DNA of 64,000 nt from Nitratireductor luteus (lineage in GTDB: Bacteria; Pseudomonadota; Alphaproteobacteria; Rhizobiales; Rhizobiaceae). Both the position numbers and the translations under genes were made by a program. The stretch's first letter is position 1; each line of letters starts with the position of its first letter. The notes beneath the pieces are model-generated. The model made no database searches, was not told where the DNA came from, and saw nothing but the letters and a program-made list of their open reading frames with translations. Of the stretch, positions 4,049-33,857 are shown in pieces. The stretch spans positions 62,001-126,000 of the forward strand of contig NZ_JAOANW010000012.1 in assembly GCF_026162365.1 (NCBI RefSeq), in the 5' to 3' direction.

Positions 4049-5428
4049 ATGGAAACAAAAGCCAATTATGTCGTCGTAGGGATATTCACGATCCTTGCCG
4101 TTCTGGCGGCGTTCGGGTTTGTCTACTGGACCGCGGCTATCGGCGACCGTGGTGAGACCGCGGCGCTGCGTTTCCGTATTCCGGGTTCGGCATCCGGCCT
4201 TCAGCGCGGCAGCGCGGTTCTTTTCAACGGCGTGAAAGTCGGCGATGTCCGCCGCGTCTATCTCGACCTCACCAATCCGAGCGTTGCCATCGCCGATGCG
4301 GAGGTCGACCGGCTGACGCCCATCACCCGCTCGACCCAGGCCGATGTCGGGCTGGCGGGTCTAACGGGGACGGCCAATATCGAGCTGAAAGGTGGTGATC
4401 CCACTGAGCCGAACCTTCTGGAACTGGCCGAGGAGCAGAACACAGTCGCCGAGATCACGGCCAGCCCGTCGGCGGTGACGAACCTGCTGCAGACGGCTCA
4501 GAGCCTTTTGACGCGCGCCGACAGTGTTATCGGACAGTTGGAAGGCTTCGTGACGGAAGCGCGCGGACCGCTAACGGAGACAGTGCGCAACGTCGAGACA
4601 TTCTCGGCCTCGCTGTCGCGCAATGCCGAGGGTATCGACCGGTTCCTGGAGAATGTCAGCAACCTGTCCGGCACCATCGCAAAGGTTTCAGGACAGCTTG
4701 AATCGACCCTGCAGGCCACCGAGGAACTGATCGGTTCCGTCGACAGGGAACGGGTGGCCAAGATCGTCGAGAATGTCGAGACCTTCACCGGGCGGCTGGC
4801 CAATGCCAGCGACCAGCTGGAGACAATCATGGCCGACGTGGACGAAGCGGTTACTTCGATAGGCGATTTCTCCCGCAACGCGACGACCACACTCGGCAAG
4901 GTCGATGAAGTGCTCGACGGCGTGGACGCAGCAGCCGTGGCTGCCGCCGTCCAGAATTTCGAGCAGGCGAGCGCCGCCGTCAACGAGGCCTCGAAGGACA
5001 TTGCCCGCGTCAGCCAGACCGTCGGCGGGCGCACCGAGGATATCGATCAGTTCATCACCGATGCCGGCCAGCTTGCCACTCGGCTCAACCAGGCCTCCGT
5101 TCGCATCGACGGCGTTCTGGCAAAGCTCGACGGTATGCTGGGCTCGGGCGATGGCGAAGGCCAGGACCTGATTGCCGAGGCGCGCAGCACGCTCCAATCT
5201 TTCCGACAGGTGGCGGACACGCTGAACGCGCGCATGGGCACGATTACCGACGGGCTTTCCCGTTTTTCAGGCAAGGGATTGCGGGAGGTCGAGGCGCTGG
5301 TTCAGGACTCCCGACGGGCGATCAACCGTATCGAACGCGCCGTCACTGAGTTCGAACAGAACCCGCAACGCATCATTACCGGTGGGGAAGGTAGCATTCG
5401 CCGGTACGATGGTCGCCAGCGCCGTTGA
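4049..5428 (+). CDS. mlaD: MlaD/MCE-domain lipid-binding protein
   Basis: A 459-residue periplasmic protein anchored by one N-terminal membrane helix (about residues 7-28). The MCE domain follows (about 38-120, including the LQRGSAVLFNGVKVGDV stretch), then some 300 residues of mostly helical, repetitive sequence rich in E, T, A and N. This long helical tail is typical of MCE proteins that form tubes across the periplasm and is much larger than E. coli MlaD (183 residues). It carries lipid between the inner-membrane permease and the cell envelope. It sits 29 bases after mlaF and overlaps the frame of the next gene. Confidence 0.9.
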   Translation: METKANYVVVGIFTILAVLAAFGFVYWTAAIGDRGETAALRFRIPGSASGLQRGSAVLFNGVKVGDVRRVYLDLTNPSVAIADAEVDRLTPITRSTQADVGLAGLTGTANIELKGGDPTEPNLLELAEEQNTVAEITASPSAVTNLLQTAQSLLTRADSVIGQLEGFVTEARGPLTETVRNVETFSASLSRNAEGIDRFLENVSNLSGTIAKVSGQLESTLQATEELIGSVDRERVAKIVENVETFTGRLANASDQLETIMADVDEAVTSIGDFSRNATTTLGKVDEVLDGVDAAAVAAAVQNFEQASAAVNEASKDIARVSQTVGGRTEDIDQFITDAGQLATRLNQASVRIDGVLAKLDGMLGSGDGEGQDLIAEARSTLQSFRQVADTLNARMGTITDGLSRFSGKGLREVEALVQDSRRAINRIERAVTEFEQNPQRIITGGEGSIRRYDGRQRR

Positions 5429-29933: not shown

Positions 29934-30677
29934 ATGACCGACCAGATGGGAAAAGAGCATGATGAGGGCGGCCGCGAGCCCCCGCGTGGCCGTGAGCCGA
30001 TATTCAACCTGCCGCCGGTCGTGGTCGCCTTTATTGGCATATGCGTCGCCGTTCATCTTGTGAGGCTGTATGTCGCCGGCCCGGCTTTCGAGCAGTTCGT
30101 GCTCCTCAACTTCGCCTTCATTCCGCTGCGATATACGGGTGGCTTTGCGATAGATCTTCCGTGGCTGACAAGCCCGTTGACCTACGCGTTCCTGCACGGC
30201 GGGTGGGCGCACCTGACGGTCAATATGATCTGGCTTGCGGCATTCGGCTCGCCGCTTGCGAACCGAATTGGCACACGCCGCTTCATTCTGTTCTGGATTG
30301 CAACAGTTCTCGCCGCTGTCGGTCTTCATTTCGTCCTTCATCCTTATGACGCAGTGCCGCTCGTCGGCGCCTCAGGCGCCATTTCCGGCATGATGGGGGC
30401 GGCGGCGCGCTTTGCCTTTCGCATCGACCGGCGGGCGGGTAAGGCGGGCTTCGCCGGTCCTGTTCTTCCCCTGAACGCGGTACTGCGCTCGCGCACGGCA
30501 ATGACGTTCCTGGCCGTGTGGATGGTGGTCAATCTCGTGGTAGGGCTTGGTATGGGCGCAGGGCCGGGAGCGCCGCCGATTGCCTGGGAGGCGCATATTG
30601 GCGGCTTTCTCGTCGGCTTCTTCTTCGTTAAAGCCTTCATGCCGGCCGAGAAAAATCTGGCGTCGCAGGACCACTGA
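29934..30677 (+). CDS. Rhomboid family intramembrane serine protease
   Basis: A 247-residue membrane protein with about six helices. The catalytic dyad is visible: Ser in GASGAISGMMG and His in WEAHIGGFLVG. The structural HGGWAHLTVNM motif in the second helix is also present. Rhomboids cleave membrane proteins within the bilayer; the substrate is not known. The hydrophilic N-terminal 28 residues (acidic, then RGRE) are cytoplasmic. It is expressed from the region carrying the terminator-like hairpin. Confidence 0.92.
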   Translation: MTDQMGKEHDEGGREPPRGREPIFNLPPVVVAFIGICVAVHLVRLYVAGPAFEQFVLLNFAFIPLRYTGGFAIDLPWLTSPLTYAFLHGGWAHLTVNMIWLAAFGSPLANRIGTRRFILFWIATVLAAVGLHFVLHPYDAVPLVGASGAISGMMGAAARFAFRIDRRAGKAGFAGPVLPLNAVLRSRTAMTFLAVWMVVNLVVGLGMGAGPGAPPIAWEAHIGGFLVGFFFVKAFMPAEKNLASQDH

Positions 30678-30719
30678 TCCGGCCTTGCAAACTGCGGCAG
30701 CCCGTCGCAACATCGCGCC

Positions 30720-30752
30720 TAGAGCGCCGCCGGACGTACAAGGGACGCTCTA
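30720..30752. repeat. Degenerate copy of the dispersed palindrome
   Basis: TAGAGCG (30720-30726) and CGCTCTA (30746-30752) are complementary. Between them GGACGTACAAGGGACGC differs from the right arm at 10960-10976 at two positions. It follows the rhomboid gene and is next to a second inverted repeat at 30782. Confidence 0.55.
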
Positions 30753-30781
30753 CTTCTTGTTTTTCCGCATTTATGCGGACG

Positions 30782-30799
30782 TCAGGTGATTCCACCTGA
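30782..30799. repeat. Second inverted repeat, part of the same mosaic
   Basis: TCAGGTG (30782-30788), loop ATTC, CACCTGA (30793-30799): perfect seven-base arms. It is 60 bases before the CBS gene and may be a regulatory operator or a second module of a rhizobial mosaic repeat. Confidence 0.5.
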
Positions 30800-30859
30800 T
30801 TGCAAAATACTACTGGGCCGGATGAGTATGCCGGCTGTCAATGCGATGAGGAGATCGCC

Positions 30860-31291
30860 ATGACCGTGAAAGCCATTTTGGACAAAAAGGGGCGCGATGT
30901 CGTCACTATTGCGGCGAGCAAGACCTTGGCCGAAGCGGCCGCATTGCTGGCAGAGCAAGGTATCGGTGCTGTTGTGGTGCTCAGCGGCGACGACCGTATC
31001 GGCGGCATTCTTTCGGAGCGCGACATCGTGCGCGTGGTCGGAAAGGAGGGCGCCAAGGCGCTCGCCAAACAGGTCTCGTCCGTCATGACAGCACGCGTGA
31101 AGGTTTGCCACGAGGAGAACACGGTCAACGATGTCATGCAGGTCATGACCGAGGGCCGCTTTCGCCACCTTCCCGTGGAGAAGAACGGACGCCTCGACGG
31201 CATTATCTCCATTGGCGATGTGGTGAAACGGCGCATCGAGGAAGTGGAACGCGAGGCGGAGGATATTCGCAGCTACATTTCAACCGCCTGA
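30860..31291 (+). CDS. Tandem CBS-domain protein
   Basis: A 143-residue protein made only of a CBS pair (residues about 8-60 and 75-130), with GGILSERDIVR and DGIISIGDVVKRRI. Such stand-alone CBS modules bind adenine nucleotides and act as energy sensors or tune thioredoxin. The ATG at 30860 follows AGGAG by seven bases; upstream in-frame codons are within the repeat region. The downstream region is the degraded YjhX gene. Confidence 0.92.
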   Translation: MTVKAILDKKGRDVVTIAASKTLAEAAALLAEQGIGAVVVLSGDDRIGGILSERDIVRVVGKEGAKALAKQVSSVMTARVKVCHEENTVNDVMQVMTEGRFRHLPVEKNGRLDGIISIGDVVKRRIEEVEREAEDIRSYISTA

Positions 31292-31326
31292 AGGGAGAGG
31301 TCGAAACCTTCCGCAGGAACTCCGCA

Positions 31327-31583
31327 TCACCTGTTGTCGAGTTGAGCGCGCACCAGCTCCAATTCTCGCCGTGTGATGCGATAGGGGCCGCCACTGCGCG
31401 GTGAAACGACTCTCTTGCGTTTCAGTTTCCTGAACAATCTGAGATCGAGACCGGGAAAGCCCCAGCCTTCCCTCGTGATGCAGCGAAGCTGCTCAAGTTC
31501 ACCATTATCGTCCTTTTCAACAGCAATGTGCCCGCCCTGGCGAGGATGTGACGAACGCGCTGTTCAGCACCCGATATGTCCAT
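31327..31583 (-). pseudogene. YjhX-family (UPF0386) protein, broken by a one-base frameshift
   Basis: From ATG 31583 the product reads MDISGAEQRVRHILARAG, then the frame shifts near 31531-31537 (in a GGGCGGGC run on the minus strand), and the rest reads HIAVEKDDNG, CITREGWGF, RKLKRKR, PYRITRREL and ends VRAQLDNR. The total of 257 bases is one short of the 85 codons plus stop of E. coli YjhX, whose ending is the same VRAQLDNR. YjhX is described as the toxin of a chromosomal toxin-antitoxin pair; no antitoxin is recognised here. Either a real inactivating deletion or a sequencing error. Confidence 0.75.
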
Positions 31584-31852
31584 TGTCGTACCTGGAAACC
31601 TGCGGCGAATGCGATTAGCCAATGAGAAACGCCGCACCGCCTTGGGCAGCGCGGATGCTCTGTTTTCATGCCCTGGCCCGAGTTGGGTTCAGGACGTTTC
31701 AGCAGGTCTCCAGGTAGCTGGATATAGAGGCTCCCTTGGTGGGAAGGTCCATTACAATAAGGCAGGCGAGGAATAAGGGCCGTTTTGCTTGCCTCGCAGG
31801 GCTGATTGGTCTAGCGAGTTCCCAGTTTTATCCGAAATCGACTGAGCACCTC
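31584..31852. other. Intergenic stretch without recognised feature
   Basis: This 269-base region between the broken YjhX gene and gatB has no reading frame that I can support, no strong hairpin and no tRNA-like fold. It presumably contains the gatB promoter. Confidence 0.5.
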
Positions 31853-33355
31853 ATGACCATTATCGACACGCGTTTGCCCGATCCAAAACGGCTGATTTCC
31901 GGCGCGACCGGCGAATGGGAAGTGATCGTCGGCATGGAAATCCACGCGCAGATCTCCTCGCACGCCAAGCTTTTTTCGGGCGCTTCGACTGCGTTCGGCG
32001 CCGAGCCGAACTCCAATGTCTCGCTGGTGGATGCCGCCATGCCCGGCATGTTACCGGTGATCAATGAGGAATGCGTCAGGCAGGCGATCCGCACCGGTCT
32101 CGGCCTCAAGGCCCAGATAAACCACCGCTCCATTTTCGACCGCAAGAACTACTTCTATCCCGACTTGCCGCAGGGCTACCAGATTTCGCAGTACAAGCAG
32201 CCGATCGTTGGCGAGGGGGTCGTCATCGTCTCGGTCGGCCCGGCTAAGGACGGCAGTTTCGAGGAGATCGAGGTCGGTATTGAACGACTGCACTTGGAAC
32301 AGGACGCGGGCAAATCGATGCACGACCAGCATCCGACCATGTCCTATGTCGACCTCAACCGCTCAGGCGTCGCGCTGATGGAGATCGTGTCCAAGCCCGA
32401 TATCCGTTCCTCCGACGAGGCCAAGGCGTTTCTCACGAAGCTGCGCACGATCCTTCGCTATCTCGGCACATGCGACGGCAATATGGACGAAGGCTCCATG
32501 CGCGCCGACGTGAATGTTTCCGTGCGCCGGCCAGGTGCACCTTTCGGCACGCGCTGCGAGATCAAGAACGTCAACTCGATCCGCTTCGTTGGCCAGTCCA
32601 TCGAATCGGAAGCGCGCCGCCAGATCGCGATCCTGGAGGATGGCGGCACCATCGACCAGGAGACGCGGCTGTTCGACCCTGCCAAGGGCGAGACGCGCTC
32701 GATGCGCTCCAAGGAGGAAGCGCATGACTATCGCTACTTCCCCGATCCCGACCTGGTGCCACTCGAATTCGACCAGGCCTATGTCGATGCGCTGGCGCAG
32801 CACCTGCCGGAGTTGCCCGACGAAAAGAAGGCGCGCTTCATGGAGAAGCTCGGCCTTTCTGAATATGACGCCTCCGTGCTGGTCTCGGAAAAGGCTGTCG
32901 CCGACTATTTCGAGAAGGTGGCGGAAGGCCGCGATGGCAAGGCTGCCGCAAACTGGGTTATCAATGATCTTCTGGGCGCCCTGAACAAGGCTGGCAAAGA
33001 CATTGAAAATACGCCTGTTTCACCGGATCAGCTTGGCGCGATAATCGATCTGATCAAGGACGGCACCATTTCGGGGAAGATTGCCAAGGACCTGTTCGAG
33101 ATCGTCTTCAGCGAAGGAGGTAATCCAGGTGTTCTGGTCGAGGAACGCGGGATGAAGCAGGTAACGGACGCCGGCGCCATAGAGAAGGCGGTGGACGACG
33201 TCATTGCCGCCAATCCCGACAAGGTCGAGCAGGTCAAGGCAAAGCCGACGCTTGCGGGCTGGTTCGTCGGCCAGGTTATGAAGGCGACGGGCGGCAAGGC
33301 CAACCCGCAGGCGGTCAACGTGCTCGTGAAGGAAAAGCTAGGGATTGATGGCTGA
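31853..33355 (+). CDS. gatB: Asp-tRNA(Asn)/Glu-tRNA(Gln) amidotransferase subunit B
   Basis: A 500-residue subunit of the GatCAB complex that converts Glu-tRNA(Gln) to Gln-tRNA(Gln). The cradle domain contains [21 protein letters not shown] and [17 protein letters not shown]; the C-terminal helical and YqeY-like domain runs from about residue 300 to the end ([11 protein letters not shown]). The ATG at 31853 gives the standard length; the 39 in-frame residues before it are unsupported. The stop overlaps the start of a GNAT gene. gatA and gatC are not in this window. Confidence 0.96.
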
Positions 33356-33857
33356 GGCTGGCTTACCGGTTTTCATCCGAACGGCGGCGCACGGCGATAT
33401 CGACAGCCTGCGCGAACTGCTTTCGCAGACCTGGCACGACACCTATGACGGCATCTATGGCCACGACCGCGTGCGCGACATCGTCGCGCGCTGGCAATCA
33501 CGGGAGACGGTGGTTGCGCGAATCGACCAGACGGATGGCGAATTCCTGGTCGCCGACGACGGCCAGCGGCTGGTCGGGATGGCCTTCGCAAGCGCCCGGG
33601 ATCAGGGGAATGTCATGATGTTGCATCAGCTTTACGTGCGTCCCGGCGAACAGGGGCGCGGAATAGGCGGTATGCTACTAGACGAAATCATCGAGAGCTT
33701 TCCGCAGGCGCGCAAGGTGCGGCTGGAAGTGGAGGAGACGAATGTGCAGGCCATCCGCTTCTACGTTTCACGCGGCTTCGGACAGGTGGGCCGCACCGGC
33801 GATTGCGGTGGACAGGGCGACCATTTGCCGGCGCTCATTCTCGAGCGTGCAGTGTAA
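33348..33857 (+). CDS. GNAT-family N-acetyltransferase
   Basis: A 169-residue acetyltransferase. The acetyl-CoA-binding motif A is [20 protein letters not shown], and motif B lies around [13 protein letters not shown]. It resembles PhnO/RimI-like GNATs; acceptor unknown. The start codon lies inside the 3' end of gatB (overlap of eight bases), so translation is coupled. It is the last gene before the NDUFA12 gene, separated by about 130 bases. Confidence 0.88.

What the first reader, a model, noticed from the sequence alone, without database searches (positions are those of the whole stretch)
31327..31583. YjhX-family gene inactivated by one base
The two reading-frame pieces together match the full 85-residue YjhX pattern, including MDISGAEQRV at the start and VRAQLDNR at the end, with exactly one base missing in a GGGCGGGC run. 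Loss of a toxin gene without its antitoxin is a plausible decay route, but homopolymer sequencing error is also possible.
Basis: partly seen in the sequence, partly recalled or inferred. Interest (0 to 1): 0.5.

Follow-up and report, generated by a model that had tools for sequence, protein, structure and literature searches.

The report
Broken yjhX gene, broken leader switch
A small gene related to a known bacterial growth-arresting protein looks genuinely dead here, and so does the tiny upstream reading frame that probably switched it on; relatives show that this eight-codon leader exists well beyond E. coli.

Summary
A YjhX (TopAI, PF09857) gene lies at 31583..31327 (-), 257 nt, and changes frame around codons 15-17, one base short of relatives. 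Sequencing error is unlikely to be the whole story, because the lineage shows a second lesion: relatives carry an 8-codon upstream ORF with a Shine-Dalgarno about 140 nt before yjhX, and here its start codon reads ATA (31725-31723). The copy also changed residues constant in 63 intact proteins (L11, S62). Ten of 15 other same-genus genomes have an intact yjhX beside a CBS-domain gene (nine of them between it and gatB); five have none. "Toxin lost without its antitoxin" is not supported: 1 of 74 yjhX loci has a YjhQ-like neighbour, and the GNAT gene behind gatB occurs independently of yjhX. The broader result: mostly solitary alphaproteobacterial yjhX genes carry a toiL-like uORF (exactly 8 codons in 53 of 62 loci, E. 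coli among them; shuffles 0.19) complementary to the yjhX ribosome-binding region. This resembles the published E. coli toiL-topAI switch, with a different peptide. In the window the hairpin remains but the leader start is gone, so the gene was probably silenced and then decayed. Function is inferred, not tested.

The parts
31327..31583 (-). yjhX (topAI, PF09857) pseudogene, 257 nt, frame broken around codons 15-17
   Evidence: intact 85-codon copy in sister genome G004 (L009)
31699..31725 (-). decayed toiL-like uORF: ATA where relatives have ATG, then SSYLETC and stop; starts 142 nt upstream of the yjhX ATG
   Evidence: ATG in all 10 intact same-genus copies
31731..31735 (-). retained Shine-Dalgarno (GGGAG) of the uORF
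31702..31716 (-). distal arm of the leader inverted repeat, inside the uORF
   Evidence: 15 nt, 93% complementary; consensus helix
31589..31603 (-). proximal arm of the inverted repeat, just upstream of the yjhX start codon
   Evidence: (duplex -29.3 kcal/mol in the window)
31632..31654 (-). terminator-like hairpin in the leader, between uORF and yjhX
   Evidence: 10 pairs, 8 G-C, T-rich tail; two such sites found in the region, shuffles mean 0.7; a hairpin at this place is in the consensus
30860..31291 (+). CBS-domain protein gene, convergent neighbour
   Evidence: 16 of 16 same-genus genomes
31853..33355 (+). gatB, divergent neighbour
33345..33857 (+). GNAT acetyltransferase gene behind gatB; not YjhQ-like and not linked to yjhX

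Best explanation
A recently dead yjhX/topAI pseudogene in an alphaproteobacterium near Chelativorans (genus inferred from a shared contig length). The ancestral unit was solitary: an 8-codon leader ORF whose own sequence pairs with the yjhX ribosome-binding region. By analogy with E. coli toiL, ribosomes stalling in the leader would open the hairpin and let YjhX, a topoisomerase I inhibitor in E. coli, be made. In this genome the leader start codon is lost while the hairpin is kept, so yjhX would stay largely untranslated; the open frame is also broken and conserved residues have drifted. Shown from sequence: the frame break, the start-codon loss, conservation of the uORF and of its complementarity, the solitary context, intact copies in sisters. 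Inferred: stalling-dependent induction, TopA inhibition in this clade, and the order 'switch lost, then gene decayed'.
For: Frame break. Intact single-frame copies in 10 of 15 other same-genus genomes, none in 5; nine of the ten lie between CBS and gatB, the tenth (G007) beside CBS with gatB on another contig. Second lesion: uORF start ATA in the window, ATG in all 10 intact same-genus copies. The uORF is real: 53 of 62 intact loci have an ATG ORF of exactly 8 codons with an SD 120-175 nt upstream, 3 more have nine codons and 1 has ten; dinucleotide shuffles mean 0.19, max 2 of 62 in 100 rounds. The 62 include E. coli K-12, where the scan returns an 8-codon ORF at 139 nt, as published for toiL (PMC12121999 section 7). 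Complementarity: MFE folds pair the uORF with the yjhX start region (5 or more pairs) in 53 of 58 leaders, window included, no shuffle control; own-partner duplexes average -17.7 kcal/mol over 57 loci against -13.4 when swapped between peptide classes, 0 of 5000 permutations as low; consensus fold of 11 leaders (10 same-genus plus L026) has an 11-pair uORF:RBS helix. Drift: 7 of 52 genus-invariant residues changed, against 0-3 of 45-48 in the ten others; L11 and S62 constant in 63 of 63 intact proteins; branch dN 0.056-0.073 against 0.006-0.022 for the sister.
Against: No reads were available, so neither lesion is verified at read level. G74E, one of the changed residues, also occurs in E. coli TopAI, and 4 or 5 of 63 intact proteins (by threshold) deviate at as many conserved sites as the window, so residue drift alone is moderate. 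Parsimony counts are small, 9 against 4. Pairwise dN/dS with the sister (0.078/0.569) is like that of intact pairs, so decay is recent. RNAalifold on 46 leaders found no consensus pairs; in a set of 16 it found only a partial helix. The uORF:RBS helix hardly varies and shows no both-sided changes. A terminator-like hairpin in the leader leaves transcription attenuation open. In E. coli, start-codon mutation of toiL left some induction, so 'locked off' may be incomplete. The 62 loci are not phylogenetically independent. No promoter-like site was found in 31250-31900. Nothing here tests toxicity or induction.
Confidence: 0.75

Rival explanations
1. Sequencing or assembly error: the gene is intact in the living strain.
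For: One single-base difference in a short G/C-rich stretch; no reads available.
Against: A second lesion in the leader; changes at residues constant in 63 of 63 intact proteins. Of window genes with codon-periodic divergence, 50 of 54 are open across their centre in the sister, and 50 of 54 the other way, the exceptions looking short or 5'-extended (the test ignores the first quarter of a gene, where the yjhX break lies).
Confidence: 0.1
2. Classic toxin-antitoxin decay: the toxin died with or after loss of a YjhQ antitoxin, possibly the GNAT behind gatB.
For: E. coli topAI-yjhQ is a toxin-antitoxin pair (PMC4666372, passages); a GNAT gene lies nearby.
Against: YjhQ-like neighbour in 1 of 74 yjhX loci. 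The GNAT aligns with YjhQ over 37 residues only, was not found behind gatB in 4 of the 10 intact same-genus genomes and is in pieces in the sister, and was found in 11 of 19 genomes lacking yjhX.
Confidence: 0.07
3. The leader acts by transcription attenuation (a terminator between uORF and yjhX) in place of, or together with, masking of the ribosome-binding site.
For: Terminator-like hairpin at 31654..31632 (-) with a T-rich tail; a hairpin in this place is part of the consensus of 11 leaders.
Against: Two terminator-like sites against a shuffle mean of 0.7 is weak; the uORF pairs with the RBS region itself.
Confidence: 0.2
4. Programmed frameshifting makes YjhX from the two frames.
For: Both pieces still resemble the family.
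Against: All 19 other YjhX-positive genomes among 60 relatives match all 85 positions in one frame without a stop; conserved residues drifted; the uORF start is lost too.
Confidence: 0.02
5. The conserved upstream block is a gatB promoter or operator and not a yjhX leader ORF.
For: In this genus it lies between divergent yjhX and gatB.
Against: It stays with yjhX where no gatB was found in the held flanks of up to 5 kb (e.g. L017, L019, L022, L030, L034, L040, L059, L069); its length is exactly 8 codons in 53 of 62 loci; it pairs with the yjhX RBS region.
Confidence: 0.08

Closest known systems
E. coli topAI (YjhX)-YjhQ toxin-antitoxin system (PMC4666372)
   Same: Same protein family (PF09857) and length (85 residues) as intact relatives; E. 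coli YjhX inhibits topoisomerase I.
   Different: YjhQ-like neighbour in only 1 of 74 loci examined; the window copy is broken.
E. coli toiL uORF controlling topAI (PMC12121999)
   Same: 8 codons, SD, start about 140 nt upstream, uORF sequence complementary to the topAI/yjhX ribosome-binding region.
   Different: Different peptide (mostly M-F/S-x-x-x-E-S/T-R/C against MLENVIIR); found with solitary yjhX in Alphaproteobacteria; antibiotic response not tested.
ermB/ermC leader-peptide control (named in PMC12121999)
   Same: Short leader ORF proposed to free a masked ribosome-binding site.
   Different: The downstream gene is not a resistance gene; no stalling shown here.

Membership tests
YjhX/TopAI protein family (PF09857) | match over the Pfam cut-off | tested here: met
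   82.3 bits against 27 for the downstream piece; 86.1 bits in the genome search
YjhX/TopAI protein family (PF09857) | one open frame of about 85 codons | tested here: not met
   two frames, 257 nt: a pseudogene of the family
TopAI-YjhQ toxin-antitoxin system | yjhQ directly downstream | tested here: not met
   the same search does find the pair in G047; E. coli arrangement seen
TopAI-YjhQ toxin-antitoxin system | toxicity through topoisomerase I, neutralised by YjhQ | not testable with these tools
   needs expression experiments
toiL-type regulatory uORF | 8-codon ORF with SD about 140 nt upstream of topAI/yjhX | tested here: met
   relatives: 53 of 62 exactly 8 codons. Window: length and SD kept, start codon lost, so the window's own copy no longer meets it
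toiL-type regulatory uORF | uORF pairs with the downstream ribosome-binding region | tested here: met
   negative, partial
toiL-type regulatory uORF | conserved ToiL peptide (first seven residues) | tested here: not met
   different peptide class; MLE/MSE types seen in L107, L108, L112 and, without a recognised SD, L110
toiL-type regulatory uORF | induction by ribosome-targeting antibiotics | not testable with these tools
   needs reporters

The most novel reading that the evidence does not exclude
Alphaproteobacterial YjhX is not an orphaned toxin. It is a stand-alone brake on topoisomerase I, made only when ribosomes stall, governed by an old 8-codon sensor ORF that keeps its length and its pairing with the yjhX ribosome-binding region while its peptide differs from ToiL. 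Loss of the sensor start silences the brake and is followed by loss of the gene, as in this genome.
Probability: 0.5. Interest if true: 0.7.

Novelty: new variant of a known kind. Interest (0 to 1): 0.5.

Why it matters
If right, translation-stress control of a topoisomerase I inhibitor is older and wider than the E. coli topAI-yjhQ pair. It would also mean that many genes now annotated 'YjhX family toxin' are solitary, leader-controlled genes and not toxin-antitoxin modules. The window supplies a natural loss case in which switch and gene failed in the same lineage. The uORF:RBS pairs across many species make the stalling model directly testable with simple reporters.

Tried and rejected
GNAT behind gatB as a hidden antitoxin: rejected, no association with yjhX. 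YjhQ elsewhere: one search found only partial GNAT matches in the 16 same-genus genomes, up to 40% identity over 111-130 residues in some relatives and 29-33% in the window's own genome; none of those places lies at the yjhX locus. Rfam: no match at E up to 1 in window 30500-32500 or in six relatives' loci. PDB by sequence: no relative (one chance hit, E 0.79). Fold: AlphaFold2 of L016 (25-row alignment, pLDDT 91.5) looks winged-helix-like to me by its element order, but Foldseek gave no PDB match at E 0.001 or better (719 at E up to 10, led by eukaryotic ribosomal proteins). Consensus structure over 46 leaders: none. The gatB tree of 23 genomes does not settle how often yjhX was lost: 7 changes of presence on that tree, 6-7 across bootstrap trees, only 2 forced by starred branches, shuffled labels similar; I claim only patchy presence. 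A first ungapped count of conserved-site changes was misaligned for two rows (L035, L059) and was replaced by a MAFFT alignment. My first whole-window frameshift screen was swamped by spurious antisense ORFs and was replaced. A second YjhQ-like hit (L063) is an artefact: the query ORF from G047 had been extended over its own yjhX, and the hit lies on L063's yjhX.

Papers: PMC4666372 (passages), PMC12121999 (outline, section 7 and passages) and PMC10117765 (passages; YjhX not mentioned in its main text) were seen; others only as search listings. Searches: YjhX/TopAI, 186 papers, 25 listed; UPF0386/YjhX, 28 papers, 25 listed; toiL/topAI/uORF, 6 papers, of which only PMC12121999 holds both toiL and topAI; six leader peptide sequences, 0 papers; leader peptides and Ribo-seq in Sinorhizobium, 16 papers, 10 listed; upstream ORFs in Alphaproteobacteria with stalling and toxin-antitoxin, 1 unrelated paper. 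In these I saw no report of an alphaproteobacterial toiL-like uORF; supplements and subscription papers were not covered.

Full report
What is there. On the minus strand, 31583..31327 carries a YjhX gene (PF09857) in two frames. The downstream piece scores 82.3 bits against a cut-off of 27; the upstream piece matches positions 1-25 weakly, 18.3 bits. From ATG to the family-like stop it is 257 nt, one short of the sister's 258, and the alignment shows one 1-nt gap whose exact place is alignment-dependent. The only ORF of 20 aa or more ending at this stop has 36 residues.

Context. The window lies in G000, 4.9 Mb in 45 contigs. One search examined 16 same-genus genomes including this one: 10 of the 15 others have a full-length single-frame match and 5 have none. 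One carrier (G009) shares a contig length of 127,495 with a Chelativorans intermedius record, so the genus is probably Chelativorans; that is inference. In nine of the ten carriers the order is rhomboid-like, CBS, yjhX (convergent to CBS), gatB (divergent); in G007 CBS is beside yjhX and gatB is on another contig. In three genomes without yjhX (G005, G010, G013) CBS and gatB are 121-171 bp apart; in the other two (G014, G015) they are on different contigs. Among 60 relatives other than G000, 19 carry yjhX, all in one open frame.

Real decay or error. Three lines favour decay. First, the leader lesion described below. Second, residue drift: the window changed 7 of 52 residues invariant in the rest of the genus; the ten others changed 0-3 of 45-48. 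Against 63 distinct intact proteins, L11R and S62P are unique and glycine at position 5 is not seen (57 R, 3 K, 3 S), but G74E occurs in E. coli TopAI, and 5 of 63 (at 90% conservation) or 4 of 63 (at 95%) intact proteins deviate at as many conserved sites. So this line is moderate. Third, branch dN is 0.056-0.073 for the window against 0.006-0.022 for its sister over nine outgroups, with 9 against 4 polarised residue changes; dS to several outgroups is saturated. Pairwise dN/dS with the sister (0.078/0.569) is like that of intact pairs, so the decay is recent. As a control on assembly quality, 50 of 54 window genes with codon-periodic divergence are open across their centre in G004, and 50 of 54 the other way; by my reading the exceptions are short or 5'-extended ORFs. 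That test skips the first quarter of each gene.

The leader. Aligning the window and five relatives showed a conserved block that is a small ORF: SD, ATG, seven more codons, stop. Of 62 intact yjhX loci, 53 have an ATG ORF of exactly eight codons with an SD 120-175 nt upstream; three have nine codons (L022, L040, L069) and one ten (L037). Dinucleotide shuffles gave a mean of 0.19 and a maximum of 2 of 62 in 100 rounds. Of the remaining five, L015 has an 8-codon ORF at 207 nt, L053 is two bases shorter in its uORF than its close relative L052, L110 has an 8-codon ORF without a recognised SD, and L013 and L066 show none. Set aside before the count: the window and L027, truncated upstream; identical proteins had been collapsed. 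Most peptides end in E-S/T-R/C (ESR 31, ETC 10, ETR 5, QSR 4 of 57). The 62 include E. coli K-12, where the scan returns MLENVIIR at 139 nt, matching the eight-codon toiL that starts 139 nt upstream of topAI (PMC12121999, section 7).

Pairing. [quoted passage not shown] Here MFE folds pair the uORF with the yjhX start region (at least five pairs) in 53 of 58 leaders, window included; this count has no shuffle control. Own-partner duplexes average -17.7 kcal/mol over 57 loci, against -13.4 for partners swapped between peptide classes, -17.2 within classes and -12.1 for shuffled RBS segments; none of 5000 permutations reached the observed mean, and 55 of 57 loci beat their own shuffles. The consensus fold of 11 leaders (10 same-genus plus L026) contains an 11-pair uORF:RBS helix. 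Against this, the 46-leader alignment gave no consensus pairs, a 16-leader set only a partial helix, and the helix varies too little to show both-sided changes. A terminator-like hairpin lies between uORF and yjhX in the window (31654..31632) and a hairpin there is in the consensus, so transcription attenuation is an open alternative. The block is not simply a gatB promoter: it accompanies yjhX at loci with no gatB in the held flanks.

The window's leader. The uORF sits at 31725..31699, 142 nt before the yjhX ATG, with its SD (31735-31731) and hairpin kept (duplex -29.3 kcal/mol), but the start codon reads ATA; the ten intact same-genus copies have ATG. In E. coli, mutating the toiL start cut antibiotic induction 12- to 110-fold, though some remained (PMC12121999). 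By analogy this genome's yjhX would be mostly silent, after which a frame break costs little. The order is inferred.

Toxin-antitoxin reading. Of 74 yjhX loci searched at E 1e-5, one (G047, same family) has a real YjhQ-like neighbour; a second hit, L063, is an artefact. The 74 include the window's own locus and at least one duplicate record. The GNAT behind gatB is not a YjhQ: with the window's GNAT as query it was not found in 4 of 10 intact same-genus genomes (G001, G002, G003, G008; in three of these only about 100 bp separate gatB from the next gene) and is in pieces in G004, while it was found in 11 of 19 genomes lacking yjhX, 2 of the 5 same-genus ones among them.

Other losses. Two more of the 54 loci look broken: L038 (Ponticaulis koreensis) has an in-frame stop and L018 (Mesorhizobium silamurunense) a displaced N-terminus; both keep an ATG uORF. 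The 54 were found with patterns from the downstream piece, so this is not a rate.

Verdict. As a pseudogene the given finding is real but ordinary. What lifts it is the uORF: a toiL-like, length-conserved leader ORF on mostly solitary yjhX genes across Alphaproteobacteria, which I did not find reported in the searches listed under Tried and rejected. I file it as a new variant of a known kind. Function is inferred throughout.

Noticed in passing
L070:4347-6175 (G004, behind gatB): The GNAT gene behind gatB matches only in pieces spread over about 1.8 kb in the sister genome, as if interrupted by an insertion.
   Followed up: no
L038, just upstream of 5001: Ponticaulis koreensis yjhX has an in-frame stop at about residue 31 while its uORF (MSFSVETR) is intact.
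   Followed up: partly
L018, about 4850-5001: Mesorhizobium silamurunense yjhX: MDISRSA followed by a stop lies 99 nt upstream of the expected start, so the N-terminus is displaced; uORF MSTYAQSR intact.
   Followed up: partly
L053, uORF starting about 146 nt upstream of yjhX: In Sinorhizobium meliloti 4H41 the uORF is two bases shorter near its end than in L052 and loses the usual stop.
   Followed up: no
L134:7894-8654 (G047): A yjhX gene with a YjhQ-like GNAT directly behind it and an E. coli-type leader (MLEIVGSL), separate from the gatB locus.
   Followed up: partly
A5 columns 45-72, 90-114 and 126-144 (leader); window 31654-31632 (-): Further conserved hairpins lie between uORF and yjhX; one looks like a terminator in the window and could be part of an alternative structure or an attenuator.
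   Followed up: no
L142 (CP090106.1, S. meliloti Ak57): A record labelled pSymB, 3.7 Mb long, carries gatB, gatC, ruvX and yjhX; the replicon label may be wrong.
   Followed up: no
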